Source of the DNA: Herbidospora cretacea
Lineage (GTDB): Bacteria > Actinomycetota > Actinomycetes > Streptosporangiales > Streptosporangiaceae
DNA length: 64,000 nt
NCBI RefSeq assembly: GCF_001570605.1
Contig: NZ_BBXG01000004.1
Span: 310,001-374,000, forward strand
Direction: 5' to 3'
Under the pieces are notes generated by a model that saw only the letters and a list, made by a program, of their open reading frames with translations, made no database searches and was not told the DNA's origin. Below, piece after piece: positions 47,449 through 63,704 of the stretch. The position numbers and the translations under genes are program-made. Positions within the stretch are counted from its first letter, which is position 1. The number at the start of each line of letters is the position of its first letter.

Positions 47449-47519
47449 CGTACTAAAAAACCGGAAAAGAACGCTGTGACCTGGACATGTGGCGCTTCGC
47501 GGGCGGGCACGCGCACCTC

Positions 47520-49079
47520 GTGAGAGTGGTCGTCGATCTGACGCGGTGCCAGGGCTACGGCCAGTGCGTGTTCCTCGCGCCCGAGGTCTTCCGGATGCGC
47601 GAAGAAGTTCTCCTGTACGACCTGGAACCCGCCGCCGACCAGCGCGAACACCTGCTGCGGGCGGCGGCGGCCTGCCCCGTCCAGGCCATCCACCTCGACT
47701 CGGTGGCCCCCACGGAGCCGGGGGAGAGCACGTACACGGGGAAGATCGTCATCGTCGGCGGGTCGCTTGCCGGGGCGCGGGCGGCCGAGACGCTGCGCCG
47801 GGAGGGCTTCGCCGGGCCGCTGACGGTGGTCAGCGAGGAGGAGGGCGAGCCCTACGACCGGCCGCCCCTGTCCAAGCAGGTCCTCACCGGCCAGGTCCCG
47901 CCCGAGCACACCCGGCTGCCCCGGGTCCGCGAGCTCGACGCCGAGTGGCTGGCCGGGACCCCGGCCTCCGGGCTCGACGTGGCGGCGAAACGGGTGCTGC
48001 TGGCCGACGGCCGCGAGGTCGGGTTCGACCGGGTCCTGCTGGCCACCGGCACCCGCGCCCGTCCGTGGCAGAACGAGGCCGAGGCCGCGCTGAAGGGCGT
48101 CCACACGCTGCGCTCGGCCCACGACGCGGGCGCGCTGCGCGAGGCGCTGGCGGCCGGGCCGGAACGGGTGCTGATCCTGGGCGCGGGCTTCACCGGCAGC
48201 GAGATCGCCTCGGTCTGCCGCGAGCTCGGCCTGCCGGTGACGCTCGTGGAGCGCGGGCCCGCGCCGCTGTTCGGCGCCCTGGGCGGGGTGCTCGGCGACG
48301 TCGCCGCCCAGATGCAGCGCGACCACGGAGTCGACCTGCGCTGCGACACGACCGTCACCGCCCTGGAGGGCGACGCCGACGGCCGGCTGCGCGGGGCCCG
48401 CCTGTCCGACGGGACCACGATCGAGGCCGACGTCGCCGTCGTCGCGCTCGGCTCGGTCCGCAACGTCGAGTGGCTGCGCGGCTCGGGGCTGGCCGCCGGG
48501 GTGTGGGGCGTGACCTGCGACGCGGGCTGCCGCGCCATCGACGTCAACGGCCTGGTCCTGGACGACGTCTTCGTGGCGGGCGACATCGCGCGGTTCCCGC
48601 ACCCGGTGTACCAGTACCAGTTCATGACCCTGGAGCACTGGGGCAACGCGGTCGCCCAGGGCGAGATCGCGGCCCACAACATGATCAGCGACCAGGCCCA
48701 CCGCTGGCCCCACCTGGCCGTGCCGGTCTTCTGGTCGAGCCAGTTCGGGGTCAACGTCAAGTCGGTCGGCGTGCCGACGTTCGCCGACGAGATCGCGATC
48801 GTGCAGGGCTCGACGGCCGAGCGCCGGTTCGTGGCCGCCTACGGCTACCAGGGCCGTATCACCGCCGCCGTCACCTTCGACCAGGGCATGTGGCTGGAGC
48901 ACTACCAGCGGCTGATCGAGCAGGCCGCCCCGTTCCCGCCCGGCGACGCGAAGGCGGAACCCGCGCGGGTGCCCGAACGGCTGTCCGCCGGGGCCGCGGC
49001 GACCGTCGTCGTGACCGGCCACGACCCGGCCGAACGGCGGGTCTCCCTGATCCACACGCCCGGAGGCGTCACGTCATGA
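47520..49079 (+). CDS. [3Fe-4S]-type ferredoxin fused to FAD-dependent ferredoxin reductase
   Basis: 519 residues from the GTG at 47520, which begins as P450-type ferredoxins do (M)RVVVDLTRCQGYGQC; an ATG at 47487 is also in frame. Residues 1-~65 form the ferredoxin with cluster Cys in CQGYGQC and ACPVQAI. Residues ~75-480 are a pyridine-nucleotide-disulfide-type reductase: FAD motif KIVIVGGSLAGARAAETLR, NAD motif VLILGAGFTGSEIASV, ATGTRARP and DDVFVAGDIARFPHP. It therefore carries electrons from NAD(P)H through FAD to an Fe-S cluster on one chain, and overlaps the P450 gene by 4 nt, so it is that enzyme's redox partner. Confidence 0.9.
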   Translation: MRVVVDLTRCQGYGQCVFLAPEVFRMREEVLLYDLEPAADQREHLLRAAAACPVQAIHLDSVAPTEPGESTYTGKIVIVGGSLAGARAAETLRREGFAGPLTVVSEEEGEPYDRPPLSKQVLTGQVPPEHTRLPRVRELDAEWLAGTPASGLDVAAKRVLLADGREVGFDRVLLATGTRARPWQNEAEAALKGVHTLRSAHDAGALREALAAGPERVLILGAGFTGSEIASVCRELGLPVTLVERGPAPLFGALGGVLGDVAAQMQRDHGVDLRCDTTVTALEGDADGRLRGARLSDGTTIEADVAVVALGSVRNVEWLRGSGLAAGVWGVTCDAGCRAIDVNGLVLDDVFVAGDIARFPHPVYQYQFMTLEHWGNAVAQGEIAAHNMISDQAHRWPHLAVPVFWSSQFGVNVKSVGVPTFADEIAIVQGSTAERRFVAAYGYQGRITAAVTFDQGMWLEHYQRLIEQAAPFPPGDAKAEPARVPERLSAGAAATVVVTGHDPAERRVSLIHTPGGVTS

Positions 49080-50248
49080 CCTGCCCCTTCCAGCGGATTC
49101 TCGACCCGTCGCACCGCGCGAACCCGTATCCGCTGTTCGACGAGCTGCGCGCCACCCCGGTCGCGCGCCAGGACGACGGCACGTACGTCGTCAGCACCTA
49201 CCGCGAGATCGTCGCCCTCCTGCACGACCCGCGCGTCAGCTCCACCCGCCGCTCCCTGCGCGACCCGGCCTTCATCGGCCTCGACCCGCCCGAGCACGAC
49301 CGGCTGCGCCACCTCGCCATGCGCCACTTCGGCCCGCCGCACAACCCCGGCAAGATCGACGCGCTGCGGCCGGACATGCTGGCCATCACGACCGGACTCG
49401 TCGACGCCCTCGCGGGCAGGCAGCGGGCCGACCTGGTCGACGAGGTCGCCTACCCGCTGCCGGTGGCGATGATCTGCCGCCTGCTCGGCGTGCCCCGCGA
49501 GGACGAGTCGACGTTCCACGCCTGGGCCGACCGGCTGATCGAGCTGATCGGGCCGGGCGACGACGACGACGCCGAGCGGGAACGCGAACGCCAGGAGGTG
49601 GCCGACAAGCTCGACCGCTACCTGGAGGGGCTGGTCGAGGAGCGCCGCCGCGAACCCGCCGACGACATGCTGTCGGGCCTCATCGCCGACGGCGGGATGA
49701 GCCAGGGGCAGATCGTCAGGACCGGCGTCCTGCTGCTGATCGCCGGGCACGAGACCACGATCAACCTGATCGCCAACGGCATGCTCACGTTCCTGCGCAA
49801 CCCGGACGTGCTGGCCCGCGTCCACGACGACCCGGAGCTGATCATCCCGGCGGTGGAGGAGCTGCTCCGCTTCGAACCGCCGGTCCAGTTCATCTCCTCG
49901 CGGGTGGCCCTGGCGGACATCGCCGTCGGCGGCGTCACCATCCCGGCCGGCGCTCCGATCGTGCTGGCCCTGGCGGCGGGCAGCCGCGACCCCGGCCACG
50001 TGGCCGACCCGGACACCTTCTCGCTCGACCGGCCCCGCAACGAGCACCTGGGCTTCGGCGGCGGCGTCCACTACTGCTTCGGCGCGCCGCTGGCCCGGCT
50101 GGAGGCGCAGATCGCGCTGACCGAACTGGTCCGCCGCCTGCGCAACCCGAGGCTGGTCACCGACCCGCCGCCGTACCGCCCGAGCGCGCTGCTGCGCGGC
50201 CCGCGCCACCTCCTGGTCGAGTACGACGAGATCCTGCCCGCGCGCTGA
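49076..50248 (+). CDS. cytochrome P450
   Basis: 390 residues. I-helix LLIAGHETTINLIANG, ExxR in VEELLRFEPPVQF, and the heme-thiolate loop FGGGVHYCFGAPLAR (Cys334). The ATG overlaps the stop of the ferredoxin-reductase gene (ATGA), so the redox partner and P450 are made together in a fixed ratio. Soluble actinomycete class I P450. The substrate is unknown. The epoxide hydrolase gene is divergent upstream and a membrane-dipeptidase-like gene follows 17 bp downstream. Confidence 0.93.
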   Translation: MTCPFQRILDPSHRANPYPLFDELRATPVARQDDGTYVVSTYREIVALLHDPRVSSTRRSLRDPAFIGLDPPEHDRLRHLAMRHFGPPHNPGKIDALRPDMLAITTGLVDALAGRQRADLVDEVAYPLPVAMICRLLGVPREDESTFHAWADRLIELIGPGDDDDAERERERQEVADKLDRYLEGLVEERRREPADDMLSGLIADGGMSQGQIVRTGVLLLIAGHETTINLIANGMLTFLRNPDVLARVHDDPELIIPAVEELLRFEPPVQFISSRVALADIAVGGVTIPAGAPIVLALAAGSRDPGHVADPDTFSLDRPRNEHLGFGGGVHYCFGAPLARLEAQIALTELVRRLRNPRLVTDPPPYRPSALLRGPRHLLVEYDEILPAR

Positions 50249-50265
50249 GGACGCATGATGTGCGC

Positions 50266-51219
50266 ATGAACCGTGCCTTTTGGGAGCAGCACGCCTGCCT
50301 GCCCCTCACCCTCGACGCCGACGTCGCCGACCTCCTGCGCTACCGCCGTCCCGGCGGGGCGTACGTGTGCGTCAACGTCGGTTACGCGCCGCACTCCCGG
50401 GAGGACTCGCTCGCGTACATCGACCACTTCACCCGCGCGATCGAGGCCCACCCCGACCTGGCGCTCGCCACGACCGTCGGCGAGATCGACGCGGCGGTCC
50501 CCGGCGACCGGATCGTGGTGGCCTTCGACCTGGAGGACTCCGGCCCGCTGGGCGGCGACCTCGACATGGTCGGGACCTTCTACGACCTGGGCGTTAAGTC
50601 GCTGCTGCCGAGCTACAACAACGGCAACGCCGCCGGGGGCGGCTGTCTCGACGCCGTCGACTCGGGGCTGACCGCCTACGGCCGCGACCTGGTGCGGCGG
50701 ATGAACGAGGTCGGCATGCTGGTCGACGGGTCGCACTGCGGCACCCGTACCGGACTGGACCTGTCGGAGGCCTCCGGCAAGCCGATGATCTACTCCCACT
50801 CGGCGATGCGCGGCCTGTGGGACCACCCCCGCAACATCACCGACGAGCAGGCCCGCGAGTGCGCCGCGACCGGCGGCGTGATCGGGATCCCCGGGGTCGG
50901 CATCTTCCTCGGGGCCAACACCGCGACCCTCGACGCCTTCCTCGCCCACATCGACTACGCCGTCGAGCTGGTCGGGCCCGAGCACGTCGGGATCGGCAGC
51001 GACTACTCCTTCGACGCCGAGGACATCATGACGGAGCTGGCCGACAACCCCGAGCTGTTCCCCGAGGAGTACACCCGCTGGGGCGTGATCCGGTTCGTCG
51101 AGCCGGAGACGACCCTGCTGGTCGAGCGCGAGCTGGTGGCGCGCGGCTATCCGGAGGAGACGGTGCGCGGCATCCTCGGCGGCAACTTCCGCCGGGTGGC
51201 GGCCGAGGTCTGGACCTAG
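50266..51219 (+). CDS. membrane dipeptidase (peptidase M19) homologue
   Basis: 317 residues. The TIM-barrel pattern of the renal dipeptidase family is recognisable: IVVAFDLEDSGPL with a ligand-type Glu, DLGVKSLLPSYNNGNAAGGGC, MLVDGSHCGTRT with a ligand His, MIYSHSAMRGLWDHPRNI with the second ligand His, and EHVGIGSDYSFDAEDI. However, the N-terminal HxD metal-site motif of classical members is absent; the start reads CLPLTLDADVADLL. The family cleaves dipeptides with D-residues at the second position, matching the operon that follows. The start is ATG 50266 (GTG two codons earlier possible). It is only 17 bp after the P450 gene. Confidence 0.78.
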   Translation: MNRAFWEQHACLPLTLDADVADLLRYRRPGGAYVCVNVGYAPHSREDSLAYIDHFTRAIEAHPDLALATTVGEIDAAVPGDRIVVAFDLEDSGPLGGDLDMVGTFYDLGVKSLLPSYNNGNAAGGGCLDAVDSGLTAYGRDLVRRMNEVGMLVDGSHCGTRTGLDLSEASGKPMIYSHSAMRGLWDHPRNITDEQARECAATGGVIGIPGVGIFLGANTATLDAFLAHIDYAVELVGPEHVGIGSDYSFDAEDIMTELADNPELFPEEYTRWGVIRFVEPETTLLVERELVARGYPEETVRGILGGNFRRVAAEVWT

Positions 51220-51224
51220 GCCGC

Positions 51225-51266
51225 TTGTCCGATCGGACAACCCCGACCGGCTGGGGTTGTCCGATC
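51225..51266. promoter_or_regulatory. array of TTGTCCGATC half-sites before the D-peptide operon
   Basis: A perfect 16-bp palindrome TTGTCCGATCGGACAA (51225-51240) shares its right half with a 14-bp inverted repeat GATCGGACAACCCC / GGGGTTGTCCGATC (51231-51244 and 51253-51266, 8-nt loop). The half-site TTGTCCGATC therefore occurs three times in 42 bp (starting at 51225 and 51257 on the top strand and ending at 51231 on the bottom), with 32 bp between the two direct copies, about three helical turns. It lies just upstream of the -10 of the serine hydrolase gene. The 14-bp IR could alternatively terminate the M19 gene. Confidence 0.75.
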
Positions 51267-51294
51267 GGCCGAGTACTGCGGTCGGTCCGCGATC

Positions 51295-51300
51295 TAGCCT
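51295..51300 (+). promoter_or_regulatory. -10 box of the D-peptide operon (leaderless)
   Basis: TAGCCT ends 6 nt before the ATG at 51307; no Shine-Dalgarno precedes this ATG. The operator array ends about 30 bp upstream, where the -35 would be. Confidence 0.5.
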
Positions 51301-51306
51301 CAGCAC

Positions 51307-52665
51307 ATGATGTCGCCGGAGAGCGCGCAGGACTGGCTGGACGGGCACCTCGCCCGCGTCCTGGCCGAACGCGGGGTGCCGGGCGCCTCGGTCGCCGTGC
51401 TGGCCGAGGGCCGGGTGGTCACCGCCGCCGCCGGGGTGCTCAGCACCGCCACCGGCGTCGAGGCGACCCCCGACGCGGTCTTCCAGATCGGCTCGATCAC
51501 CAAGCTGTGGACCAGCGCCCTGGTCATGCAGCTCGTCGACGACGGCCTGGTCGACCTGGACGTGCCGATCCGCGGCTACCTGCCGGAGTTCACCGGCGGC
51601 GACCCGTCGATCACCACGCGGCAGCTGCTCTGCCACGTCGCGGGCTTCGAGGGCGACGTCTTCACCGACACCGGCCGGGGCGCCGACGCGGTCGAGCGCT
51701 ACGTCGCCACGCTCCACGACATCCCGCAGCTCTTCCCGCCGGGCGAGGTCTTCTCGTACAACAACACCGGGTTCGTGGTGCTCGGCCGCCTGGTCGAGGT
51801 GCTGCGCGGCAGGCCGTTCGACGAGGTGCTGGTCGAACGGCTGGTCCGGCCGCTCGGGCTCACCCACGTCTCGCCCAGCCCCTACGAGGCGATCGTGCAC
51901 CGGGTCGCGGTCGGCCACGTGCGGGGGCCGACCCCTACGTGGGCGCTGGCCAGGTCGAACGCGCCCGCCGGGTCGATGCTCGCGATGACCGCGCGCGACC
52001 TGCTCGGCTTCGTCGCGGCCCACCTCGCCGACGGCGGCGGCCTGCTCAGGCCCGGCACGGTGGCGGCCATGTGGCAACCGCAGGTGAAGGTGCCCGACCT
52101 CGGCACCATGCGTGAGGCCTGGGGGCTCGGCTGGGCGCTGGCCGAGCACGACGGCCACGCCGTCGTCGGGCACGACGGCGGGACCATCGGCCAGGCGGCC
52201 TTCCTGCGGGTCGTGCCGGACCTCGGGGTGGCGATCGCGCTGCTCACCAACGGCGGCGACGTCTTCGGGATCTTCGACGACGTGCTCGCCCACCTGCTGA
52301 GGGAGCTGACCGGCATCACCCTCCCGGGACGCCCGACGCCCCCGGCGGAGCCGGAGCCGATCGACCCCGCGCCCTACCTGGGGCAGTACTCCGACACGAT
52401 CTACGACATCACCGTGAGCCAGGACGCCGACGGCTCCATCCGGCTCGACCGGGTGCCCAAGGACGTCATCGCCGAGATCGGCGAGCAGCCCCTGAGCCTC
52501 CGGCTGGTGCACCTCGACGGCGACTCACTGATCTCCGCCGAGCCGATCCGCGGCGTCCACCCCGTCTTCGCCTTCATCGGGCGCGACGAGGCGGGCCTCG
52601 CGAAGTACGTCCACTACGGCCGTGTGGTCGCCCGTCTCAGAAAGGGAACCGAATGCGTCCCCTGA
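51307..52665 (+). CDS. serine hydrolase, beta-lactamase/D-aminopeptidase family (first paralogue)
   Basis: 452 residues. Penicillin-recognising serine hydrolase: SxxK in FQIGSITKLWTS (S63, K66), YxN in FSYNNTGF (Y151, N153), and HxG in VVGHDGGTIGQ. A C-terminal domain of about 120 residues (PAPYLGQYSDTIYDI...) forms the extra beta-barrel found in D-aminopeptidases and PBP4*-like enzymes. There is no signal peptide, so it works in the cytoplasm on imported peptides. It heads an operon with an oligopeptide ABC transporter; a second paralogue is at 57689. The stop overlaps the binding-protein gene by 13 nt. Confidence 0.87.
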   Translation: MMSPESAQDWLDGHLARVLAERGVPGASVAVLAEGRVVTAAAGVLSTATGVEATPDAVFQIGSITKLWTSALVMQLVDDGLVDLDVPIRGYLPEFTGGDPSITTRQLLCHVAGFEGDVFTDTGRGADAVERYVATLHDIPQLFPPGEVFSYNNTGFVVLGRLVEVLRGRPFDEVLVERLVRPLGLTHVSPSPYEAIVHRVAVGHVRGPTPTWALARSNAPAGSMLAMTARDLLGFVAAHLADGGGLLRPGTVAAMWQPQVKVPDLGTMREAWGLGWALAEHDGHAVVGHDGGTIGQAAFLRVVPDLGVAIALLTNGGDVFGIFDDVLAHLLRELTGITLPGRPTPPAEPEPIDPAPYLGQYSDTIYDITVSQDADGSIRLDRVPKDVIAEIGEQPLSLRLVHLDGDSLISAEPIRGVHPVFAFIGRDEAGLAKYVHYGRVVARLRKGTECVP

Positions 52666-54227
52666 TCGCGGTTCTTGCCCTGATCGGCCTGGCCGGCTGC
52701 GGCGCAGGTGGCGGTGGCGGTGAAGCCGGCGGCGGGTCCGCCGCCCCGGCCGCCGGGAAGACCTTCACCCTGGACATCGCCTCCGACCCGGGCGCCCTCG
52801 ACCCGCAGGGTTCGGCGGTCAGCGCCCTGTTCGGGATGACCCAGTACGCCTACGACAGCCTGGTCTCCGTCGCCGCCGACGGCACGATCCAGCCCCAGCT
52901 CGCGAGCGCCTGGACGGCCGAGGGCACCACCCTCACCTTCGACATCAAGAGCGGCGTCACCTGCGCCGACGGCGCGCCGTTCACCGCCCAGACGGTGGTC
53001 GACAACCTCACCTATGTGGGCGACCCGGAGAACAAGAGCCCGTTCCTGGGCGTCTACCTCCCGGCCGGCGCCACCGCCACCGCCTCGGGCTCGAAGGTCA
53101 CCGTCAAACTGGCCGCTCCCGCGCCGTTCGCCCTGAACGGCCTGTCCAACCTGGCGATGGTCTGCGACGCCGGGATGAAGAACCGGGCGAGCCTCAAGGC
53201 CGCCACCAACGGCACCGGCCCGTACGTCCTGACCGAGGCGGTCCCGTCCGACCACTACACCTACACCCTCCGCGAGGGCTACACCTGGGGTCCGGGCGGC
53301 GCGACCACGGCCGAGAAGGGCATGCCGGCCAAGGTCGTCGTCAGGATCGTCGCGAACGAGACCACCGCCGCCAACGAGCTGCTCTCGGGCACCGTCAACG
53401 CGGTCCAGGTCATCGGCCCCGACGCCGACCGCCTCACCGGCGCGGGCCTGAAGTCCGTCGGCACCCAGGCGCTGGTCGGCCTCCAGTGGTACAACCAGGG
53501 CAAGGGCCACCCCACCGCCGACCCGGCCGTGCGGATGGCGCTGACCCAGGCCCTCGACCTGAAGCAGCTCCAGGTCGCCATCACCTCCGGCAAGGGCGCG
53601 CCCGCGACCCAGTTCGCCACCCTCGCCCCGAGCGGCTGCGCGGGCGACGCCGTCACCGGCCACCTCCCGGCCTTCGACGCCGCCGCGGCCGGGACCGCCC
53701 TCGACACCGCCGGGTGGACGAAGGGCGCCGACGGCGTCCGGGCCAAGGACGGCAAGCCGCTCTCGGTCTCCCTCATCTACGACAGCGGGCTCGGCAGCGC
53801 GGGCAGCGGCGCGGCCGAACTGGCCGTGGCGGCCTGGAAGGCGGTCGGCGTCGAGGCCAAGGCCGTCGCGCAGAACCAGACCCAGCTCTCCGGCACGGTC
53901 TTCGGCACCGGCGACTGGGACGTCGCCTGGGTGCCGCTCAACGTCAGCACCCCCGACCAGGTCATGCCGTTCCTGTCCGGCCCGGCCGCGCCGAAGGGCA
54001 CCAACTTCGCCGCCATCGACAACGACGGCTACCTCGCCGCCGCCACCAAGGCGATGGGCGCCAACGGCGCCGAGGGCTGCCCCGACTGGTTCGCCGCCGA
54101 GCAGGCGCTCTACCAGGCCGCCGACGTGGTGCCGTTCGCCAACAGCGTGGTCCCGACCTTCCTCAAGGGCGTGGAGCTCGACGTCGTCGGCAGCATCGTC
54201 CCGACCAGCATCCGGATGCTCGGCTGA
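52653..54227 (+). CDS. oligopeptide ABC transporter substrate-binding lipoprotein (family 5)
   Basis: 524 residues. The signal peptide ends in a lipobox (LALIGLAGCGAG). The SBP_bac_5 fold begins at TFTLDIASDPGALDPQG and continues through FDIKSGVTCADGAPFTAQTVVDNL. Peptide-binding family. It overlaps the serine hydrolase gene by 13 nt, with AGAAAGGGA as ribosome-binding site, so the two are coupled. The exact ligand is unknown; the context suggests peptides containing D-amino acids. Confidence 0.92.
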   Translation: MRPLIAVLALIGLAGCGAGGGGGEAGGGSAAPAAGKTFTLDIASDPGALDPQGSAVSALFGMTQYAYDSLVSVAADGTIQPQLASAWTAEGTTLTFDIKSGVTCADGAPFTAQTVVDNLTYVGDPENKSPFLGVYLPAGATATASGSKVTVKLAAPAPFALNGLSNLAMVCDAGMKNRASLKAATNGTGPYVLTEAVPSDHYTYTLREGYTWGPGGATTAEKGMPAKVVVRIVANETTAANELLSGTVNAVQVIGPDADRLTGAGLKSVGTQALVGLQWYNQGKGHPTADPAVRMALTQALDLKQLQVAITSGKGAPATQFATLAPSGCAGDAVTGHLPAFDAAAAGTALDTAGWTKGADGVRAKDGKPLSVSLIYDSGLGSAGSGAAELAVAAWKAVGVEAKAVAQNQTQLSGTVFGTGDWDVAWVPLNVSTPDQVMPFLSGPAAPKGTNFAAIDNDGYLAAATKAMGANGAEGCPDWFAAEQALYQAADVVPFANSVVPTFLKGVELDVVGSIVPTSIRMLG

Positions 54228-54229
54228 CC

Positions 54230-55192
54230 ATGAAGACCCCCGTGACCAGCAGGTGGCCGCGCTTCGCGCTCCGGCGCGCGGGGCGGCTGCTGGTGTCGCT
54301 CTGGGTGCTGGTGACCGCGTCGTTCCTGATGATCCACCTGGTCCCGGGCGACCCTGTCCGCGCCGCGCTCGGCCCGACCGCCCCCGCCGACCTGGTGCTG
54401 GCCCACAAGGAGGAGCTCGGCCTGCTCGACCCGCTGTGGCAGCAGTACGCCGCGTTCCTGGGCCGCCTGTTCAGCGGCGAGCTGGGCGCCTCGATCTCCA
54501 CCCGGCTCCCGGTCGGCGAGACGATCGCCCAGCGGCTGCCCGCCACGGCCGAGCTCGCGGTGGCCGCGTTCCTGCTCTCGGTGGCGGTCGCGGTGCCCGT
54601 CGGCGTGGTGATGGCGGTGATCACCCGGCGGGGCAGAGGGCGGCGCGCGGAGCTGGCCTTCACCGGCACGAACGTCGTCATCGGCGCGATCCCCGACTTC
54701 CTGCTCGGCGTCGGGCTCGTCTACCTGCTGGCCGTGCAGACCCACGTCTTCCCCGTCGCGGGCCGCGAGGGGCCCTCCTCCTACGTGCTGCCGGTGCTCG
54801 CGCTGGCGATCGGCCCGGCCGCGGTGCTGTCGCGCATCGTCCGCGTGGAGATGCTCGCGGTGATGGAGGCCGACTACATCCGCACCGCGCGGGCCAAACG
54901 GCTCACGAACCTGCGCGTGTACGCCGTCCACGCCCTCCCCAACGCGGTGACCGCGACCCTGACGATCGGCGGCCTGCTGCTGAGCTCGCTGGTGGCCGGG
55001 ACGGTCCTGGTGGAGAACGTGTTCGCCTGGCCGGGCCTCGGCTCCTCGATCGTCACCTCGATCGTCGCGAAGGACTACCCACTGGTCCAGGGCACCGTGC
55101 TCGTGTACGGCGTCGGCGTCCTGCTCATCAACACCCTGGTCGACGTGGTGCTCGCGCTGCTCGACCCGCGTTCGGCGATCGGAGAGAGCTGA
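54230..55192 (+). CDS. peptide ABC transporter permease (DppB type)
   Basis: 320 residues with the N-terminal segment RRAGRLLVSLWVLVTASFLMIHLVPGDPVRAALGP typical of DppB/OppB, six membrane helices, and the EAA-like loop MEADYIRTARAKRLTNLRVYAVHALPN. Gap of 2 nt to the binding protein; its stop (TGA) shares its last base with the next ATG. Together with the following fused subunit it forms the peptide channel. Confidence 0.92.
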   Translation: MKTPVTSRWPRFALRRAGRLLVSLWVLVTASFLMIHLVPGDPVRAALGPTAPADLVLAHKEELGLLDPLWQQYAAFLGRLFSGELGASISTRLPVGETIAQRLPATAELAVAAFLLSVAVAVPVGVVMAVITRRGRGRRAELAFTGTNVVIGAIPDFLLGVGLVYLLAVQTHVFPVAGREGPSSYVLPVLALAIGPAAVLSRIVRVEMLAVMEADYIRTARAKRLTNLRVYAVHALPNAVTATLTIGGLLLSSLVAGTVLVENVFAWPGLGSSIVTSIVAKDYPLVQGTVLVYGVGVLLINTLVDVVLALLDPRSAIGES

Positions 55193-56957
55193 TGAGGCCC
55201 GTCGGCGTGGCCGGGCTCGGGCTGCTCGGCGCCGTGGTGTTCGTCGCCGCGTTCGGCCCCGTGCTCTGGGGCGACCAGGCCACCGTCGTCGACACCGGGA
55301 ACCTGCTGGCCGGGCCGTCGGCGCAGCACTGGATCGGCACCGACAACCTCGGCCGCGACCTGTTCGCCCGGGTGCTCGTGGCCGCCCGGCTCTCGATCCT
55401 GCTGGCCCTGGCCGCCACGGCGATCAGCCTGGTGCTGGGGATCGTCCTGGGGGCCGCGCCGGTGCTGGTCGGGCGGCGGACGGGCCGCTTCATCACCTCG
55501 GCCGTCAACGTGCTGGTGGCCTTCCCCGGCCTGCTGCTCGTGCTGTTCTTCGCCGTCGTCTTCGGCGTCGGCGCGCGGGGGGCCGCGCTCGCGGTCGGCC
55601 TGGCGGGCGCGCCCGCCTTCGCCCGGCTCTGCCACACGCTGGTGGCGGCCGTGTCCGAGCGCGACTACATCGCGGCGGCGCGCATCGCCGGGGTGAGCCG
55701 GATCCGGATCCTGCTGCGGCACGTGCTGCCGAACATCGCCGAACCCCTCGTCGTCAACGCGACGATGGCGGCCGGCGGCGTGCTCCTCACCTTCGCCGGG
55801 CTGTCCTTCCTGGGGCTGGGCGTGCAGGCCCCGGACTACGACTGGGGCAAGCTCATGCAGGACGGGCTGAACGGCATCTACGTCCACCCGCTCGCCGCGC
55901 TCGGCCCCGGCATCGCCGTGGTGCTCGCCGGGCTGGCCTTCAACCTGACGGGCGAGGCGTTCGCGGCGGCCCCCGGCAGGGTCCGCCCCCTCGGCCCGGC
56001 CCGCGGGCCCTCGGTGCGCACCGCTCCCGTCCCCGGGGCGGTCCTGTCCGTCGACGACCTGCGGGTGACCATGCCCGGCCCGGTCCACGCCGTGCGCGGG
56101 GTCACCTTCACCGTCGGCGAGGGCGAGGCCGTCGGACTGGTCGGCGAGTCGGGCTCCGGCAAGTCGGTGACCGCGCTGGCGGTGGCCGGGCTGCTCGAAC
56201 CGCCGGTCCGCGTCGAGGCGAATCACCTGGTCGTGGCGGGCGAGGAGGACCACCGGCGGCTGGGCACCTCGCTGGCGGTCGTCTTCCAGGACCCGATGAC
56301 GTCGTTCAACCCGGCCCACCGGGTCGGCCCCCAGCTGGCCGAGGTGAGCCGGTTCCACCAGGGCATGAGCCGCCGGACGGCCTTCGCGCGGGCGGTCGAC
56401 CGGCTGCGCGCGGTGCGGATCCGCGAACCTGAGCGGCGGGCCCGGCAGTACCCCTTCGAGTTCTCCGGCGGCATGCGGCAGCGGGCCATGATCGGCATGG
56501 GCCTCATGGGGAACCCCCGGCTCATCGTCGCCGACGAGCCGACCACCGCCCTCGACGTCACCGTGCAGCGGCAGGTGCTCGAACTGCTCGCCGAGGTCCG
56601 CCGGGAGACCGGGGCCGCGCTGCTGCTCATCAGCCACGACGTCTCGGTCGTCACCGACGTGTGCGACCGGGTGCTGGTCATGTACGCGGGCCGCGTCGTC
56701 GAGGAGCTGCCCGCCGGGGACCTGCGCGCGCGGGCGCGCCATCCGTACACGCGGGCGCTGGTCGCGGCCGTGCCGGACCTGGAGACCGACCTCGACCGGC
56801 CGCTCGCCGTCATCCCCGGGCTGCCCGTCGACCCCATGTCGGCCCCGGCCGGATGCGCCTTCGCGCCGCGCTGCCCGCTCGCCGACGACCACTGCCGCGC
56901 CGTCGCGCCTCCGCTCCTGGCCGGGGTGGCCTGCCACAAGACCGCGGAGGTGCGGGT

Positions 56958-56961
<4 letters not shown>
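55192..56961 (+). CDS. fused peptide ABC permease (DppC) and ATPase (DppD)
   Basis: 589 residues in one chain. Residues 1-~265 are the DppC-type permease (WIGTDNLGRDLFARVLVAARLSILLALAATAISLVLG; EAA loop ERDYIAAARIAGVSRIRILLRHVLPNIAEPL). Residues ~285-589 are a DppD-type ATPase: Walker A GESGSGKS (318-325), Q-loop VFQDPMTSFNP, signature FSGGMRQRAMIG, Walker B RLIVADEPTTALD, and the oligopeptide C-terminal Cys motif (CAFAPRCPLADDHCRA) that binds an Fe-S cluster or metal. The fusion seen here removes the normal separate DppC and DppD genes and fixes their ratio. It overlaps the next gene by 4 nt. Confidence 0.92.
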
Positions 56962-57688
<727 letters not shown>

Positions 57689-57692
<4 letters not shown>

Positions 57693-59068
57693 CCACGACC
57701 ACCGGCATCGACCAGGCCCACTGGCAGAACCGCCTCGACGAACTCGCCGCCAAGCACGGCGTCCCCGGCGCCCAGCTCGGCATCCTGCGCGACGACGAGC
57801 TCGTCACCCTGGCCACCGGCGTGCTGCACGCCGGCACCGGCCAGCCCGCCGCCACCGACTCGGTCTGGCAGATCGGCTCGATCTCCAAGGTGTGGACGGC
57901 CACCGTCGTCATGCAGCTCGTCGACGAGGGCGCCCTCACCCTCGCCACGCCAGTCGCCGAGATCCTGCCGGAGTTCAAGCTGCGCGACCCGGAGACCACC
58001 GCCGCCGTCACCGTCTGGCACCTGCTCACCCACACCAGCGGCATCGACGGCGACCTGTTCACCGACACCGGCCGGGGCGACGACGCGCTGGAGAAGTACG
58101 TCGCCCTGCTGGCCGACTCGGCGCAGAACCACCCGATCGGCGCCACCTGGTCCTACTGCAACGCGGGCTACTCCGTGCTCGGCCGGATCATCGAGGCCGT
58201 CACCGGCAAGGTCTGGGACCAGGCGATGCGGGAGAAGCTGTTCACCCCGCTCGGCCTGACCCACACCACCACCCTGCCCGAGGAGGCGATGGTCTTCGGC
58301 CACGCCATGGGCCACGTCAAGGGCGGCGACGAACCGGTGGTCGCGCCGGTGTGGGGGCTGCCCCGCGCGGTCGGCCCGGCCGGGCTGATCACCGCGACCG
58401 TCGCCGACGTGCTCGCCTTCGCCCGGATGCACCTTCTCGGCGGGGTCGCCGCCGACGGCACCCGCGTGCTGTCGGCCGAGAGCGCCGCGGCGATGTCGGC
58501 CTACCAGACCGACTGCCCCGAGAAGCGCCTGCTCGGCGACTCATGGGGGCTCGGCTGGTTCCGCTGCGACTGGCACGGCCACCGCGCCTACGGCCACGAC
58601 GGCAACACCATCGGCCAGGCCGCGTTCCTGCGCGTGCTCCCGGAGGCCGGGGTCGCCGTCGCGCTCATGACCAACGGCGGCAACACCCACGACCTCTACG
58701 TCGACCTCTACGACGAGATCTTCGCCGCCCTGACCGGCGTGCGGCTGCCCGAGCCGTTCGAGCCCCCGGCCGAGCCCGTCACCACCGACCTGACCCCGCA
58801 CCTCGGCGTCTACGAGCGCGAGTCGGTCCGCGTGGAGGTGCTCGAGGAGGACGGCAAGCCGATCCTGCGCACCACGCTGACCGGCCCGCTGGCCGAGCTG
58901 GAGGGCGACCCCGTCACCACCTACGAGATGACCCCGGTCGAACCCGCCGTCTACGCGGTCCGCCCCGAGGGCATGGAGTCGTGGCTGCCGGTGACCTTCT
59001 ACTCGCTGCCCACCGGCGAGGAGTACGTCCACTACGGCGCCCGCGCGACCCCGAAGAGGCTCGGCTGA
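57689..59068 (+). CDS. serine hydrolase, beta-lactamase/D-aminopeptidase family (second paralogue)
   Basis: 459 residues, a paralogue of the enzyme at 51307. SxxK in WQIGSISKVWTA (S65, K68), YxN in WSYCNAGYSVLG (Y156, N158, with Cys between), HxG in YGHDGNTIGQAAF. The C-terminal beta domain is present (LTPHLGVYERESVRVEV). No signal peptide. Position after the ATPases rather than at the operon head suggests a different substrate range from the first copy. Its GTG overlaps the ATPase stop by 4 nt. Confidence 0.87.
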
Positions 59069-59070
59069 CC

Positions 59071-60177
59071 GTGCTCACCGGCATCGGAACGTTCCTCGCC
59101 GACCTCCGGGCGCTCGTCGAGTGCGAGTCCCCCTCCTCCGACCAGGCCGCCGTGGCCCGGTCGGCCGACCTGGTGGCGGCCATCGGCACGGCGCGGCTCG
59201 GCGTGCCGCCCGAGCGCCTCACCGTCGACGGCTGCTCCCACCTGCGCTGGCGCTTCGGCGACGGCGACCGCCAGGTACTGCTGCTGGCCCACCACGACAC
59301 GGTCTGGCCGGTCGGGACGCTGGCGGTCCGGCCGTACACGGTGGAGGAGGGGGTCGTGCGCGGCCCCGGCTGCTTCGACATGCTCACGGGCCTGGTGATG
59401 GCCGTCCACGCCGTCGCCGGCCTGCCCGACCCGACCGGCGTCACGCTGCTCGTGACGGGCGACGAGGAGATCGGCTCGCCGAGCTCGGTCGCCCTGATCG
59501 AGGAGGAGGCCCGCCGGTCCAGGGCCGCGCTGGTCCTGGAGGGCTCGGCCGGCGGCGGCGCGCTGAAGACCGCGCGCAAGGGCACCTCCATGTACGAGGT
59601 GCACGTCACCGGCCGCGCCGCCCACGCCGGCCTGGAGCCGGAGAAGGGCGTCAACGCCACCCTCGAACTGGCCCGGCTCGCCCTCGCGACGGCCGAGCTG
59701 GCCCGGCCGGCGGCCGGGACGACCGTCACCCCGACGGTCGTCACCGCCGGGACCACGGTGAACACGGTGCCCGCCCGCGGCTTCTTCGCCGTGGACGTCC
59801 GCGCGTGGAGCCACGACGAGCAGCTCCGGGTCGACCGCGAGCTGCGCGAGCTGACCCCGCTCGACCCCGGCGCGGTGGTCGAGATCAGGGGCGGGATCAA
59901 CCGGCCCCCGCTCGAAGAGCGGGCCAGCCGGGCGCTGTTCGACCGGGCCGCCTCCCTCGCGGCCCGGCTCGGACTGCCGCCCGTCACCGGCACGGCGGTC
60001 GGCGGCGCGTCCGACGGCAACTACACCGCCGGGGCCGGCACCCCCACCCTCGACGGCCTGGGCGCGGTGGGCGGCGGCGCGCACGCCGACCACGAGCACG
60101 TCCTGGTGGGCCGGCTGGCCGACCGCACCCTGCTGCTGCGGGAACTGGTGGCCGAACTGCTGCGGGAGGCGCCGTGA
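59071..60177 (+). CDS. M20-family amidohydrolase (probable N-acyl/N-succinyl-amino-acid deacylase)
   Basis: 368 residues with the two-domain M20/carboxypeptidase G2-like plan. Metal-site motifs: LLLAHHDTVWPVG (H74, D76), RGPGCFDMLTGLV, VTGDEEIGSPSS (catalytic Glu pair) and a C-terminal GGAHADHEHVLV (His ligand); the dimerisation domain is inserted in the middle (HVTGRAAHAGLEPEKGVNAT). In the Geobacillus-type D-to-L amino acid pathway this family removes the succinyl group. The GTG start at 59071 lies 2 nt after the previous stop. Confidence 0.85.
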   Translation: MLTGIGTFLADLRALVECESPSSDQAAVARSADLVAAIGTARLGVPPERLTVDGCSHLRWRFGDGDRQVLLLAHHDTVWPVGTLAVRPYTVEEGVVRGPGCFDMLTGLVMAVHAVAGLPDPTGVTLLVTGDEEIGSPSSVALIEEEARRSRAALVLEGSAGGGALKTARKGTSMYEVHVTGRAAHAGLEPEKGVNATLELARLALATAELARPAAGTTVTPTVVTAGTTVNTVPARGFFAVDVRAWSHDEQLRVDRELRELTPLDPGAVVEIRGGINRPPLEERASRALFDRAASLAARLGLPPVTGTAVGGASDGNYTAGAGTPTLDGLGAVGGGAHADHEHVLVGRLADRTLLLRELVAELLREAP

Positions 60178-60944
60178 GCCTGCTCGACCTGGCGGCCCGG
60201 GACGCGGGCGACCGCGCCCAGAAGGCGGGCGTGGAGATCCGCGAACTCCGGGACCTGCCCCAGGCCCACGCCATGATCGACCTGCTCCAGGAGATCTGGG
60301 GCCGCCCGCTGATCACGGTGGAGTTCCTCCGCGCGCTGGCCAGGGCGGGCAACTACGCCGCCGGGGCCTACGACGGCGACCGGCTCGTCGGCGTCTGCAT
60401 CGGCTTCCACGAGGAACCGGCGGCCCGCACCCTGCACAGCCACGTCGCCGGGGTCGCGCCGGGCCTGGCGGGCCGCGGCGTCGGCCGGGCGCTCAAGCTC
60501 CACCAGCGCGCCTGGGCGCTGGCCCGCGACATCCCCACGATCGAGTGGACCTTCGACCCGCTGGTCGGCCGCAACGCCTACTTCAACATCGTCAAGCTGG
60601 GGGCGCTCCCGGTGGAGTACCTCACCAACTTCTACGGCGCGATGCACGACGCGATCAACGGCGCCGACGACACCGACCGGCTGCTCGTCCGCTGGGACCT
60701 GCTCTCGCCGAGGGTCGTCGCCGCCTGTTCGGGCACACCCTTCGAGCGCCCGGCCGGCGGCCCGTCGAGCCGCCGGGTCGCGGCCCCGGCCGACATCGAG
60801 TCCCTGCGCCTCGACGACCCGGCCGCCGCCGTGGCCTGGCGACGGCGGGTCCGCGACGAGCTGGAGCCGCTGATGGCCGCCGGGGGCCGCGTCGTCGACT
60901 TCGACCCCGGCCGTGGCTACCTCGTCGAACTGGAGACCTCATGA
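60174..60944 (+). CDS. GNAT-family acyltransferase (probable D-amino-acid N-succinyltransferase)
   Basis: 256 residues. N-terminal GNAT fold: VEIRELRDLPQAHAMIDLLQEIWGRPLITVEFLRAL, motif A region LHSHVAGVAPGLAGRGVGRALKLHQRAWAL (R/Q-x-x-G-x-G/A acyl-CoA loop), then a C-terminal domain of about 100 residues not found in ordinary GNATs. The same gene order, GNAT-racemase with an M20 hydrolase, is known for the N-succinylamino acid racemase pathway. GTG start overlaps the M20 stop by 4 nt. Confidence 0.82.
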   Translation: MSLLDLAARDAGDRAQKAGVEIRELRDLPQAHAMIDLLQEIWGRPLITVEFLRALARAGNYAAGAYDGDRLVGVCIGFHEEPAARTLHSHVAGVAPGLAGRGVGRALKLHQRAWALARDIPTIEWTFDPLVGRNAYFNIVKLGALPVEYLTNFYGAMHDAINGADDTDRLLVRWDLLSPRVVAACSGTPFERPAGGPSSRRVAAPADIESLRLDDPAAAVAWRRRVRDELEPLMAAGGRVVDFDPGRGYLVELETS

Positions 60945-62065
60945 AGCTGCGCGGAATCGAACTGCGCCGTGTCTCGATGCCGCTGGTGTCGCCGTTCCGC
61001 ACCTCCTTCGGCACCCAGACCGAGCGCGACATCCTGCTGCTCAAGGCGGTGACCGACGACGCCGAGGGCTGGGGGGAGTGCGTCGCGCTGAGCGACCCGC
61101 TCTACTCGGCCGAGTACGTCGAGTCGCAGCAGGACGTGCTGCGCCGGTTCCTGCTGCCGAGACTCGCCTCGCCGGAGGGCACGGCCGCGATCGGACGGTC
61201 CGGCGCGGCGGCGGTGGCGGGGCTGCTGCATCCGTACAAGGGACACCGGATGGCCAAGGCCGCGGTGGAGATGGCGATCCTCGACGCGGAGCTGCGCGCG
61301 CTCGGCCGCTCGTTCGGCCGCGAACTCGGCGCGGTCGCCGACCGGGTGCCGAGCGGGGTGTCGGTCGGCATCCACGACTCGATCCCCGAACTGCTGGCCG
61401 CCGTCGGCGGCTACCTGGACGAGGGCTACGCCCGCATCAAGCTGAAGATCGAACCGGGCTGGGACGTGGCCCCGGTGGCCGCCGTGCGCGAGCGGTTCGG
61501 GGGAGACGTGCTCCTCCAGGTCGACGCCAACACCGCCTACACCCTCCGCGACGCGCGCCACCTGGCCAGGCTCGACGCATTCGACCTGCTGCTGATCGAG
61601 CAGCCGCTGGAGGAGGAGGACGTCCTCGGCCACGCCGAGCTCGCCCGGCACCTGGCCACCCCGATCTGCCTCGACGAGTCGGTCGTGTCCGCCCAGACCG
61701 CCGCCGCCGCGATCACGCTGGGGGCGTGCCGGATCATCAACATCAAGCCCGGCCGGGTCGGCGGATACCTGGAGGCCAGGAAGATCCACGACCTGGCCGC
61801 CGCCCACGGGATCGCCGTCTGGTGCGGCGGCATGGTCGAGACCGGCCTCGGCCGCGCCGCCAACATCGCCCTGGCCGCCCTGCCCGGCTTCACCCTGCCC
61901 GGCGACGTGTCGGCCTCCGACCGCTTCTACCGCACCGACATCACCGAGCCGATCGTCCTGGCCGACGGCCACGTCGCGGTGCCCACCGGCCCCGGCCTGG
62001 GCGTCGCCCCCATCCCCGAGCTGCTGGAGAGCGTGACCACGTCGGTGGAGTGGATCAGCTTCTGA
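60941..62065 (+). CDS. N-acylamino-acid racemase / o-succinylbenzoate synthase family (MenC-like)
   Basis: 374 residues of the enolase superfamily, MLE/NSAR-OSBS group. Catalytic KxK lysines are in ARIKLKIEPGWD (K167, K169), metal ligands in LLQVDANTAY, IEQPLEEED and ICLDESVVS, and the opposing general-base Lys in IINIKPGRVGGY (K269). The capping domain is N-terminal (RRVSMPLVSPFRTSFGTQTERDILLL). Chemistry: 1,1-proton transfer on N-acyl (succinyl) amino acids, or OSB dehydration in menaquinone synthesis. The neighbours (peptidases, GNAT, M20) and the absence of men genes favour the racemase role. The ATG overlaps the GNAT stop by 4 nt. Confidence 0.9.
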   Translation: MKLRGIELRRVSMPLVSPFRTSFGTQTERDILLLKAVTDDAEGWGECVALSDPLYSAEYVESQQDVLRRFLLPRLASPEGTAAIGRSGAAAVAGLLHPYKGHRMAKAAVEMAILDAELRALGRSFGRELGAVADRVPSGVSVGIHDSIPELLAAVGGYLDEGYARIKLKIEPGWDVAPVAAVRERFGGDVLLQVDANTAYTLRDARHLARLDAFDLLLIEQPLEEEDVLGHAELARHLATPICLDESVVSAQTAAAAITLGACRIINIKPGRVGGYLEARKIHDLAAAHGIAVWCGGMVETGLGRAANIALAALPGFTLPGDVSASDRFYRTDITEPIVLADGHVAVPTGPGLGVAPIPELLESVTTSVEWISF

Positions 62066-62087: not shown

Positions 62088-63704
62088 GTGAGTCAGCGAC
62101 CGCGCGCCAGCCTCGGCAGGGTCCTCGACGACCTGGGCTCCACCCTCCTGGAACTGGTCGCCGGCGACGTCGGGCAGCCCGAGGCCATCAGCGCCCTGGC
62201 GATCTTCGACCCGCTCGACGAGCCCGTCCTCGCCCCCCGCTCGCTGGTCCTGGGCGTCGGCGTCGACCCGGCCGCCGGCACCCTCGCCCCGCTGCTGCGC
62301 TCGCTCGGCGGCCACGCCACGGTGGGCCTGGTCGTCCGGGCCCCGGTCGCGCTCACCCCGGAGGTGCGGGCGGCGGTCGAGGAGAGCGGCGTCGCGCTGA
62401 TCGGCCTGCGCCGGGGCGCGACCTGGGCCCAGCTGACCGCGCTCATCCGCACCATGCTCTCCGAGGGCGACATCGGGGTCATCGGCCACGAGTCGCTCGG
62501 CGGCCTGCCGTCCGGCGACCTGTTCGCGGTCGCCAACGCCGTGGCCGCCCTCCTCGACGCCCCCATCACCATCGAGGACCGCAGCTCCCGCGTCCTGGCC
62601 TTCTCCGGCCGCCAGGACGAGGCCGACCCCTCCCGCGTGGAGACCGTCATCGGCCGCCAGGTCCCCGAGCGCTACGCCAACCGCCTGACCGAACTCGGCG
62701 TCTTCCGCGACCTCTACCGCTACCAGACCCCCGTGGTCGTCAGGCCGCAGGACCTCGGCTACGACGAGACCACCGTGCAGCGCGTCGCCATCGCGGTCCG
62801 CGCGGGCGACGAGGTCCTCGGCTCGATCTGGGCCGCCATGGACGGCGAGGTCGACGGCGAACGCACCCAAGCCCTCCTCGACGCCTCGAAACTGGTCGCG
62901 CTCCACCTGCTGCGCCTGCGGGCCGGCGCCGACGTCCAGCGCAGGCTCCGCACCGACCTCATCGGCACCGTCCTGGAAGGCGGCGCCGGCGCCCGCGACG
63001 CCCTGGCCCGCCTCGGCCTGTCGGCCCGCCGCCTCGTCATCGTCAGCGCCGCCCTGCTCACCGGCGACGACCACGCCCACTCCGACCTCGAACGCCTGGC
63101 CGACGCCCTGTCGGTCCACCTGTCGGCGACGGTCCCGTCGTCGGCGGTGGCCGCCGTGGGCGGCACCGTCTACGGCCTGCTCCCGGTCGTCGTCACGGCG
63201 GGCAGCCCCGAACAGCGGGCCGCCCGGCTGGCCGCCGACTTCGTCGACCGCGTCGACGGCAACCTCCACGCCATCGTCGCGGTCGCCCCGGCGGGCTCCG
63301 ACATCAGCGCCATCGTCCACGGCAAGGCCCAGGCCGACCGGGTGCTGCGGGTGATGCGCGAGGGCCACACCAGCCTGCGGGTGGCCCGGCTCGACGACGT
63401 CCAGACCCTCGCCCTGGTCCTGGAGCTCCGCGACCTCGCCGCCGCCCGGGGCGAGCGCCCCGGCGGCGCGATCGCCCGGCTGATGGAGTACGACGAACGC
63501 AACAACGCGGGCCTGGTCGAGACGCTGGAGGCCTGGCTCGACGCCCTGGGCGACGTGACCAAGGCCGCGAGCGACCTGTTCATCCACCCCAACACCCTGC
63601 GCTACCGCCTCAGGCGCGTCACCGAGGTCGGCGAGATCGACCTCACCGACCCGGAACAGCGCTTCGCCGCCATGCTCCACCTCCGCATCCTGGCCCCCCG
63701 CTGA
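62088..63704 (+). CDS. PucR/CdaR-family transcriptional regulator
   Basis: 538 residues. N-terminal PucR-type effector domain (residues ~10-140), a GGDEF-like central region around 200-420 and the C-terminal PucR helix-turn-helix (residues ~475-535: TLEAWLDALGDVTKAASDLFIHPNTLRYRLRRVTEVGEIDL). It starts with the GTG at 62088 from the TATACT-N6 geometry. PucR-type proteins usually activate catabolic operons of purines, amino acids or sugar acids. It lies 22 bp after the racemase gene and is the best candidate for the factor that reads the TTGTCCGATC array at 51225. Confidence 0.88.
   Translation: MSQRPRASLGRVLDDLGSTLLELVAGDVGQPEAISALAIFDPLDEPVLAPRSLVLGVGVDPAAGTLAPLLRSLGGHATVGLVVRAPVALTPEVRAAVEESGVALIGLRRGATWAQLTALIRTMLSEGDIGVIGHESLGGLPSGDLFAVANAVAALLDAPITIEDRSSRVLAFSGRQDEADPSRVETVIGRQVPERYANRLTELGVFRDLYRYQTPVVVRPQDLGYDETTVQRVAIAVRAGDEVLGSIWAAMDGEVDGERTQALLDASKLVALHLLRLRAGADVQRRLRTDLIGTVLEGGAGARDALARLGLSARRLVIVSAALLTGDDHAHSDLERLADALSVHLSATVPSSAVAAVGGTVYGLLPVVVTAGSPEQRAARLAADFVDRVDGNLHAIVAVAPAGSDISAIVHGKAQADRVLRVMREGHTSLRVARLDDVQTLALVLELRDLAAARGERPGGAIARLMEYDERNNAGLVETLEAWLDALGDVTKAASDLFIHPNTLRYRLRRVTEVGEIDLTDPEQRFAAMLHLRILAPR

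What the first reader, a model, noticed from the sequence alone, without database searches (positions are those of the whole stretch)
51307..62065. Dedicated operon for import, cleavage and stereo-inversion of D-amino-acid peptides
Eight genes overlap or nearly touch: serine D-aminopeptidase-like hydrolase, peptide-binding lipoprotein, DppB permease, fused DppC-DppD, DppF, a second serine hydrolase, M20 deacylase, GNAT acyltransferase and an N-acylamino-acid racemase. The last three match the known N-succinylation/racemisation/desuccinylation route (described in Geobacillus kaustophilus) that turns D- into L-amino acids irreversibly. Here it is joined to its own peptide importer and two cytoplasmic hydrolases without signal peptides. 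The combination suggests a complete scavenging system for D-containing peptides, for example from peptidoglycan or non-ribosomal peptides.
Basis: partly seen in the sequence, partly recalled or inferred. Interest (0 to 1): 0.85.

Follow-up and report, generated by a model that had tools for sequence, protein, structure and literature searches.

The report
D-amino-acid peptide salvage operon
A soil actinobacterium carries one gene cluster that appears to import small peptides, cut them, and turn the mirror-image (D) amino acids inside them into the usual L form, which would give a long-studied industrial racemase a natural job.

Summary
An M19 dipeptidase-family gene upstream and a PucR-type regulator downstream belong with them. 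The host looks like a Herbidospora. The racemase is 73% identical to the crystallised Amycolatopsis N-acylamino acid racemase, catalytic residues and R266 kept. This genome has its own MenC beside MenD, so menaquinone does not need it. GNAT and racemase co-occur (81 of 86 racemase genomes, 296 sampled) and are often adjacent. Importer, S12 hydrolase, M20, GNAT and racemase share the locus in 55 of the 80 closest named loci, but in 1 of 20 chosen across families. A palindromic site pair, unique in the genome, lies upstream. Against a fixed system: all six congeners lack the operon M20. No activity, D-specificity or substrate is shown. Best reading: import and hydrolysis of D-residue peptides, then N-succinylation, racemisation and L-desuccinylation; a new combination of known parts.

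The parts
50266..51219 (+). M19 (membrane/renal dipeptidase family) protein, 317 aa; the HxD metal motif reads HxC here. Lies upstream of the site pair, so probably its own transcript.
   Evidence: Pfam PF01244 239.9 bits; closest solved 2i5g, then 3id7; H9, C11, E90, H157, H178, R189, D246 identical in 9 of 9 close sequences, window included
51225..51240 (.). Operator-like perfect palindrome TTGTCCGATCGGACAA (site 1)
   Evidence: With site 2 the only matches within 2 mismatches in the 8.28 Mb genome, reversed control 0; found upstream of the operon head in relatives
51257..51272 (.). Operator-like site 2, TTGTCCGATCGGCCGA, starting 32 bp after site 1
51295..51300 (+). Possible -10 element TAGCCT, 6 nt before the ATG of SH1 (leaderless transcript inferred)
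   Evidence: position; a CTAGC motif is seen by eye upstream of SH1 in many relatives printed; inference
51307..52665 (+). SH1: S12 (beta-lactamase fold) serine hydrolase, no signal peptide seen
   Evidence: Pfam PF00144 223.4 bits; S63, K66, Y151, N153 in 24 of 25 sequences (one gap), H289 and G291 in 25 of 25, window included; closest solved 7spn 'IS11', then 6ksu
52653..54227 (+). Peptide-binding lipoprotein (SBP_bac_5)
   Evidence: Pfam 154.2 bits; lipobox-like LAGC
54230..55192 (+). DppB-type permease
   Evidence: Pfam BPD_transp_1 111.2 bits
55192..56961 (+). Fused DppC permease + DppD ATPase, 589 aa
   Evidence: Pfam BPD_transp_1, ABC_tran and oligo_HPY in one frame; 59 of 60 homologous hits longer than 1500 nt in the named loci are open throughout
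56964..57692 (+). DppF ATPase
   Evidence: Pfam ABC_tran 114.2 bits
57689..59068 (+). SH2: second S12 serine hydrolase, 43% identical to SH1
   Evidence: Pfam 233.2 bits; S64, K67, Y156, N158 in 67 of 68 sequences (one gap), H303 and G305 in 68 of 68, window included; SH1-SH2 BLASTP
59071..60177 (+). M20 metallohydrolase, proposed N-succinyl-L-amino acid desuccinylase
   Evidence: Pfam 75.7 and 56.5 bits; closest solved carboxypeptidase G2; D103, E132, E133 in 73 of 74 sequences (one gap), E157 and H338 in 74 of 74, window included
60174..60944 (+). GNAT acyltransferase, proposed succinyl-CoA:D-amino acid N-succinyltransferase
   Evidence: Pfam Acetyltransf_1 23.3 bits, cut-off 20.7; no PDB sequence relative at E <= 0.001; 21 invariant columns over 32 sequences including Deinococcus and Sulfitobacter
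60941..62065 (+). N-succinyl/N-acylamino acid racemase (NSAR), enolase superfamily
   Evidence: 72.6% identity to 1SJA over 372 columns, with K169, D195, E220, D245, K269, R272 aligned to K163, D189, E214, D239, K263, R266; invariant in 89 of 89 sequences, window included
62088..63704 (+). PucR-type regulator (HTH_30), proposed pathway regulator
   Evidence: Pfam PF13556 74.1 bits; a homologue lies within 600 bp downstream of NSAR in 64 of 80 named loci

Best explanation
A dedicated scavenging operon for peptides that contain D-amino acids. The lipoprotein and the DppB/DppCD/DppF ABC importer bring in short peptides. Two S12 serine hydrolases without signal peptides, helped by the M19 protein next door, release amino acids, including D-residues. 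GNAT puts a succinyl group on the D-amino acid, the racemase inverts it as the N-succinyl compound, and the M20 enzyme removes the succinyl group from the L form only, which pulls the route from D to L. The PucR-type regulator encoded at the end probably acts at the palindromic site pair before the first gene. Shown: gene content, gene order, conserved catalytic residues, association across genomes, a separate MenC, the site pair. Inferred: every substrate, stereospecificity, succinyl as the acyl group, and the regulator-site match.
For: Overlapping genes. Racemase 73% identical to 1SJA with bases, metal ligands and R266 intact. Separate MenC beside MenD here; 70 of 86 racemase genomes have a separate MenC. 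GNAT-racemase co-occurrence 81 of 86 and 81 of 83; same-strand adjacency within 1 kb for 75 of 103 GNAT hits. Importer, S12, M20, GNAT and racemase together in 55 of the 80 closest named loci. Rearranged clusters on two Deinococcus plasmids: racemase, GNAT, ABC permeases, SBP, S12 and a D-aminoacylase-like gene in both, M19 in D. ficus; the D. ficus amidohydrolase is closest to solved D-aminoacylase, 246.9 bits. Arthrobacter: S12, dipeptidase, PucR, M20, GNAT and racemase. Sulfitobacter joins the pair to an amino-acid importer. Site pair unique in the genome and kept in relatives.
Against: The operon M20 is absent in 6 of 6 congeners and in Nonomuraea cypriaca, and no M20 is found in 11 of 80 named loci; the congeners' best match is a 59-60% paralogue elsewhere. 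The H. yilanensis locus also lacks the importer genes and M19. Importer plus S12 was seen in 1 of 20 loci across families. D. radiodurans pMP1 has racemase, one SBP and GNAT but no peptide importer or S12 gene in view. SBP, DppB, S12 and M20 proteins are below the cut-off of every NCBIfam model shown (best 25 rows each) and GNAT matches none. The one model passed by the racemase is OSBS (TIGR01928, 292.6 bits, cut-off 200.65). M19 has HxC in place of HxD. No substrate was tested.
Confidence: 0.68

Rival explanations
1. The racemase is really the o-succinylbenzoate synthase (OSBS) of menaquinone synthesis, and the neighbouring genes are a general peptide-use operon.
For: The NCBIfam OSBS model TIGR01928 is passed; homologues on the six annotated plasmids opened are named menC; [quoted passage not shown] Planotetraspora kaengkrachanensis (G336) and 6 of 86 sampled racemase genomes have MenD but neither this MenC type nor the futalosine family PF02621, so there the racemase may make OSB. 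In G127 a racemase lies about 6 kb from MenD, and in G180 a GNAT about 3.6 kb from MenD.
Against: In this genome MenC (427.9 bits, cut-off 288) lies next to MenD. All six Amycolatopsis genomes tried, including the one whose racemase is 98.6% identical to 1SJA, have a separate MenC over the cut-off. GNAT tracks the racemase (81 of 83 GNAT genomes), while 141 genomes have MenC without the racemase.
Confidence: 0.1
2. A general peptide and N-acyl-amino acid scavenging operon with no special link to D-residues: the importer and S12 enzymes feed on peptides, while GNAT, racemase and M20 handle N-acylated amino acids.
For: NSAR enzymes accept many N-acyl groups (PMC7431475, passages); the M20 enzyme is nearest carboxypeptidase G2; S12 D-specificity is not shown.
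Against: A racemase is only useful when D-forms occur; a GNAT that acylates would work against a pure deacylation route; D-aminoacylase-like and M19-family genes recur in related clusters.
Confidence: 0.15
3. Stereo-inversion runs the other way, making D-amino acids from L for cell wall or secondary metabolites.
For: Racemases are reversible; the two Deinococcus clusters carry a D-aminoacylase-like enzyme and no M20 in the stretch shown.
Against: Here the cluster holds an M20 enzyme, an importer and hydrolases; no D-aminoacylase-like domain is among the ten proteins scanned.
Confidence: 0.05

Closest known systems
Geobacillus kaustophilus NSAR pathway (Sakai et al. 2006; title seen in a reference list; gene details recalled)
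   Same: Racemase, GNAT and desuccinylase encoded together; proposed irreversible D to L conversion.
   Different: Here joined to a peptide importer, two S12 hydrolases, an M19 gene, a PucR regulator and a site pair. The sequence relation of the GNAT and M20 proteins to the Geobacillus ones was not tested.
Bacillus subtilis dpp-ykf murein-peptide genes (PMC2954226 and PMC5808125, passages)
   Same: Dipeptide ABC importer next to peptidases and an enolase-superfamily enzyme that inverts a D centre.
   Different: There the epimerase works on the dipeptide L-Ala-D-Glu with YkfA and YkfC; here an N-acylamino acid racemase goes with a GNAT and an M20, and no LD-carboxypeptidase or NlpC/P60 domain was found in the ten proteins scanned.
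Amycolatopsis sp. TS-1-60 N-acylamino acid racemase (1SJA)
   Same: 72.6% identical, same catalytic residues; its 98.6% relative in A. rubida lies in a D-aminoacylase-like/M20/GNAT/NSAR/PucR cluster followed by S12 and the importer (L128).
   Different: Other gene order, an amidohydrolase gene, and one S12 hit in the stretch seen.
S12 enzymes: IS11 (7spn), 6ksu, ClbP, D-amino acid amidase
   Same: SxxK, YxN and HxG motifs; homologous over most of the length for the first two.
   Different: Below the D-aminopeptidase cut-off (49.5 and 50.3 of 443 bits); no signal peptide seen; specificity unknown.

Membership tests
NSAR/NAAAR (enolase superfamily, MLE subgroup) | Two catalytic lysines, three acidic metal ligands and R266 (1SJA numbering; roles recalled) | tested here: met
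   (89 of 89 sequences, window included)
NSAR/NAAAR (enolase superfamily, MLE subgroup) | Racemises N-succinyl- or N-acyl-amino acids | not testable with these tools
   Only by relation to the Amycolatopsis TS-1-60 enzyme, measured on N-acetyl-methionine (PMC8142540, passage)
OSBS (MenC, TIGR01928) | Score above the curated cut-off | tested here: met
   292.6 bits, cut-off 200.65; I judge that the model does not separate NSAR from OSBS
OSBS (MenC) | Sole OSBS candidate of a genome with MenD, or lies with men genes | tested here: not met
   Separate MenC next to MenD on contig C1
G. kaustophilus-type D to L pathway | NSAR, GNAT and M20 genes in one operon | tested here: met
G. kaustophilus-type D to L pathway | GNAT uses succinyl-CoA and D-amino acids; M20 is specific for N-succinyl-L-amino acids | not testable with these tools
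G. kaustophilus-type D to L pathway | GNAT and M20 are sequence relatives of the Geobacillus enzymes | not tested
   No Geobacillus sequence was fetched
dpp-ykf murein-peptide operon | Dipeptide ABC importer next to an enolase-superfamily enzyme | tested here: met
dpp-ykf murein-peptide operon | LD-carboxypeptidase YkfA and NlpC/P60 peptidase YkfC | tested here: not met
   Neither domain among the ten proteins scanned
D-aminopeptidase (NF009622) | Score above the curated cut-off | tested here: not met
   49.5 (SH1) and 50.3 (SH2) against 443 bits
S12 serine hydrolases | SxxK, YxN and HxG motifs (recalled) | tested here: met
M19 dipeptidases | HxD, E, H, H, D metal ligands (recalled) | tested here: inconclusive
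   HxC replaces HxD; the other ligand positions are present

The most novel reading that the evidence does not exclude
This operon type is the natural home of the classical N-acylamino acid racemase, whose biological role a review gives as OSBS: a regulated module of peptide import plus stereo-inversion, found in at least 19 actinobacterial genera by record title. In relatives without MenC (Planotetraspora, with a 90% identical racemase) the same enzyme also covers menaquinone synthesis, so the well-known NSAR/OSBS promiscuity is used in nature in both roles.
Probability: 0.4. Interest if true: 0.72.

Novelty: new variant of a known kind. Interest (0 to 1): 0.6.

Why it matters
The Amycolatopsis racemase is used in biocatalysis (PMC7431475, passages) and is a standard example of enzyme promiscuity; a 2014 review gives its biological role as OSBS (PMC4215206, passage). 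A 98.6% relative sits in a gene cluster of this type, in a genome with its own MenC. That gives a testable physiological role in recycling D-amino acids from cell walls or nonribosomal peptides, names candidate partners (GNAT, M20, S12, S9-S12 fusions) and a candidate operator, and marks automatic 'menC' labels on such genes as probably misleading.

Tried and rejected
Menaquinone reading: tested with MenC and MenD models and set aside for this genome, but not for every relative. MenC absence was judged with one model only (PRK02901; E <= 1e-70, the curated cut-off), so another MenC type could be missed. Chance clustering: rejected. NikA, DapE, ArgE, AmpC and D-aminopeptidase labels: below cut-off in the rows shown. 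The genes before M19 (47487-50248): a P450 hit occurs in 3 of 80 named loci and there lies downstream of PucR, so they were left out. Lone racemase genes in genus g53: neighbours were listed and by eye none is a men gene (no family search was run on them). Structure prediction of GNAT was not possible, so no fold search was run. Literature: in the listings of searches (several capped, e.g. 20 of 409 and 25 of 161 shown) no title or abstract start joins this racemase to a peptide-import operon; the library lacks most subscription papers, so this is weak evidence of novelty. Searches served the M19 and dpp-ykf comparisons.

The 20 loci were picked by me from the 86 racemase genomes, one to five per family. 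Of 45 plasmid records with a GNAT match I opened 7. Counts over genomes are not corrected for relatedness; thresholds were E <= 1e-15 (GNAT) and 1e-60 (racemase). Gene models in relatives come from my own ORF filter, which sometimes called the wrong strand; presence and absence therefore rest on tblastn and, for M20, on the distance between genes.

Full report
Observation. The window lies on contig C4 of an 8.28 Mb genome. Nine + strand genes run from 51307 to 62065 with gaps of -13 to +2 bp. Upstream is an M19 dipeptidase-family gene (50266-51219), and 22 bp downstream a PucR-type regulator (62088-63704).

Racemase. It is 72.6% identical to the Amycolatopsis racemase 1SJA over 372 columns; both catalytic lysines, the three acidic ligands and R266 align and do not vary in 89 sequences, window included. 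The residue roles are recalled. NCBIfam's OSBS model is passed (292.6 bits, cut-off 200.65), and the six annotated plasmid records I opened name the homologue menC. But this genome has an actinobacterial MenC (427.9 bits, cut-off 288) next to MenD (435.8 bits). Of 86 racemase-bearing genomes among 296 sampled from the class, 70 have a separate MenC at E <= 1e-70. Of the 16 without, 9 carry the futalosine-pathway family PF02621. Of the remaining 7, six have MenD; there, and in Planotetraspora kaengkrachanensis (MenD but no MenC and no PF02621), the racemase may serve as OSBS. Actinomadura geliboluensis (G337) showed none of the three.

Association. Over the 296 genomes, GNAT is found in 83 and the racemase in 86; both in 81, neither in 208. 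75 of 103 GNAT hits lie within 1 kb of a racemase on the same strand, 84 within 20 kb. In the 80 closest named loci the GNAT gene is adjacent in 79, an M20 is present in 69, an importer (two or more of its four genes) in 65, an S12 hydrolase in 69, and all five together in 55; by the record titles the 55 cover 19 genera. In 20 loci chosen across families, GNAT is in 18 regions (in one of them about 12 kb away), M20 in 9, and importer plus S12 in 1; four others show only weak ABC-type hits of 28-39% identity. So the GNAT-racemase core is widespread, and the peptide module is joined to it in a subset.

Variants. In 40 of 42 named loci with an S9 peptidase directly before the S12 domain, the two are one open frame; the two proteins scanned have 1098 and 1076 aa. 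Some Amycolatopsis and Streptomyces loci carry an amidohydrolase before M20 (9 of 80 named loci have a hit), whose closest solved relatives are N-acyl-D-glutamate deacylase and D-aminoacylase (90.9 and 79.1 bits). Two Deinococcus plasmids hold the same kinds of genes in another order, the D. ficus amidohydrolase being closest to solved D-aminoacylase (246.9 bits); D. radiodurans pMP1 shows only racemase, one binding protein and GNAT. Sulfitobacter joins racemase and GNAT to an amino-acid importer. The A. rubida racemase is 98.6% identical to 1SJA and sits in such a cluster; that genome has its own MenC. [quoted passage not shown] Strain TS-1-60 itself was not examined.

Evidence against a fixed complete system. 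In all six congeners the stop of SH2 lies only 768-784 bp before the racemase, room for GNAT alone, and in Nonomuraea cypriaca 829 bp; in two relatives that keep M20 it is 1872 and 1910 bp. The junctions differ, and in a tree of four concatenated proteins five congeners form one clade, with this strain and H. mongoliensis outside it (that last pairing weakly supported, 0.236). Repeated loss is likely. Each congener's best M20 match is a paralogue of 59-60% identity elsewhere; in this genome and in G003 that paralogue lies beside a second GNAT, with an M19 gene next to it in this genome. The H. yilanensis locus also lacks importer and M19 hits.

Regulation. Between M19 and SH1 lie TTGTCCGATCGGACAA (51225-51240) and TTGTCCGATCGGCCGA (51257-51272). 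They are the only matches within two mismatches in the genome, and the reversed pattern gives none. Site 1 recurs within two mismatches before the operon head in all six congeners, three Planotetraspora (there before SBP, no SH1 hit being found) and three Nonomuraea. Within three mismatches the scan of 87 loci gave 26 hits against 1 for the control; 20 of the 26 lie before the operon head, five of these being second entries of the same strain, and 6 lie elsewhere. That PucR binds there is inferred, as are the -10 element and a leaderless start at 51307.

Mechanism. I judge import, hydrolysis, N-succinylation, racemisation and L-desuccinylation most likely (0.68). No catalytic step was tested. 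Peptidoglycan or nonribosomal peptides as source is open.

Novelty. The parts are known: the Geobacillus-type pathway (recalled; title) and the dpp-ykf layout (passages). I saw no description of the combination in the listings I could search, in a library without most subscription journals.

Noticed in passing
L155 8223-11040 (G000 C3, about 222222-225039): A second M19-M20-GNAT cluster in the same genome with no racemase hit beside it; an M20 of this kind is the best match in all six congeners.
   Followed up: partly
L133 4675-7971 and 39 other named loci: S9 prolyl-oligopeptidase-type domain fused in frame to the S12 hydrolase, about 1080-1100 aa in the two read.
   Followed up: partly
L195 8658-9809, L196 9180-10280, L198 8905-10005, L200 9030-10172: In one genus of the same family (g53, 4 genomes) a racemase homologue has no adjacent GNAT (GNAT genes lie elsewhere), while the MenC model finds nothing and MenD is present; possible OSBS replacement.
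   Followed up: partly
G000 C1:608377-609612 and C20:51525-52751: Two MenD genes above the cut-off in this genome.
   Followed up: no
window 47487-50248: Two genes that I take by eye for a ferredoxin-reductase fusion and a cytochrome P450 (no family search run); the second ends 17 bp before M19. In congeners with a hit to the second it lies downstream of PucR.
   Followed up: no
L175-L178: Four genomes of one family (f27, 1.2-2.2 Mb) show only the GNAT-racemase pair of this set in the stretch fetched; in L175 it is followed by what looks by eye like transporter genes.
   Followed up: no
L128, L129 and L145 at 11134: Palindrome TGGTCGGATCGGACCA about 63 bp before the PucR hit in Amycolatopsis, similar to the Herbidospora site.
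   Followed up: no
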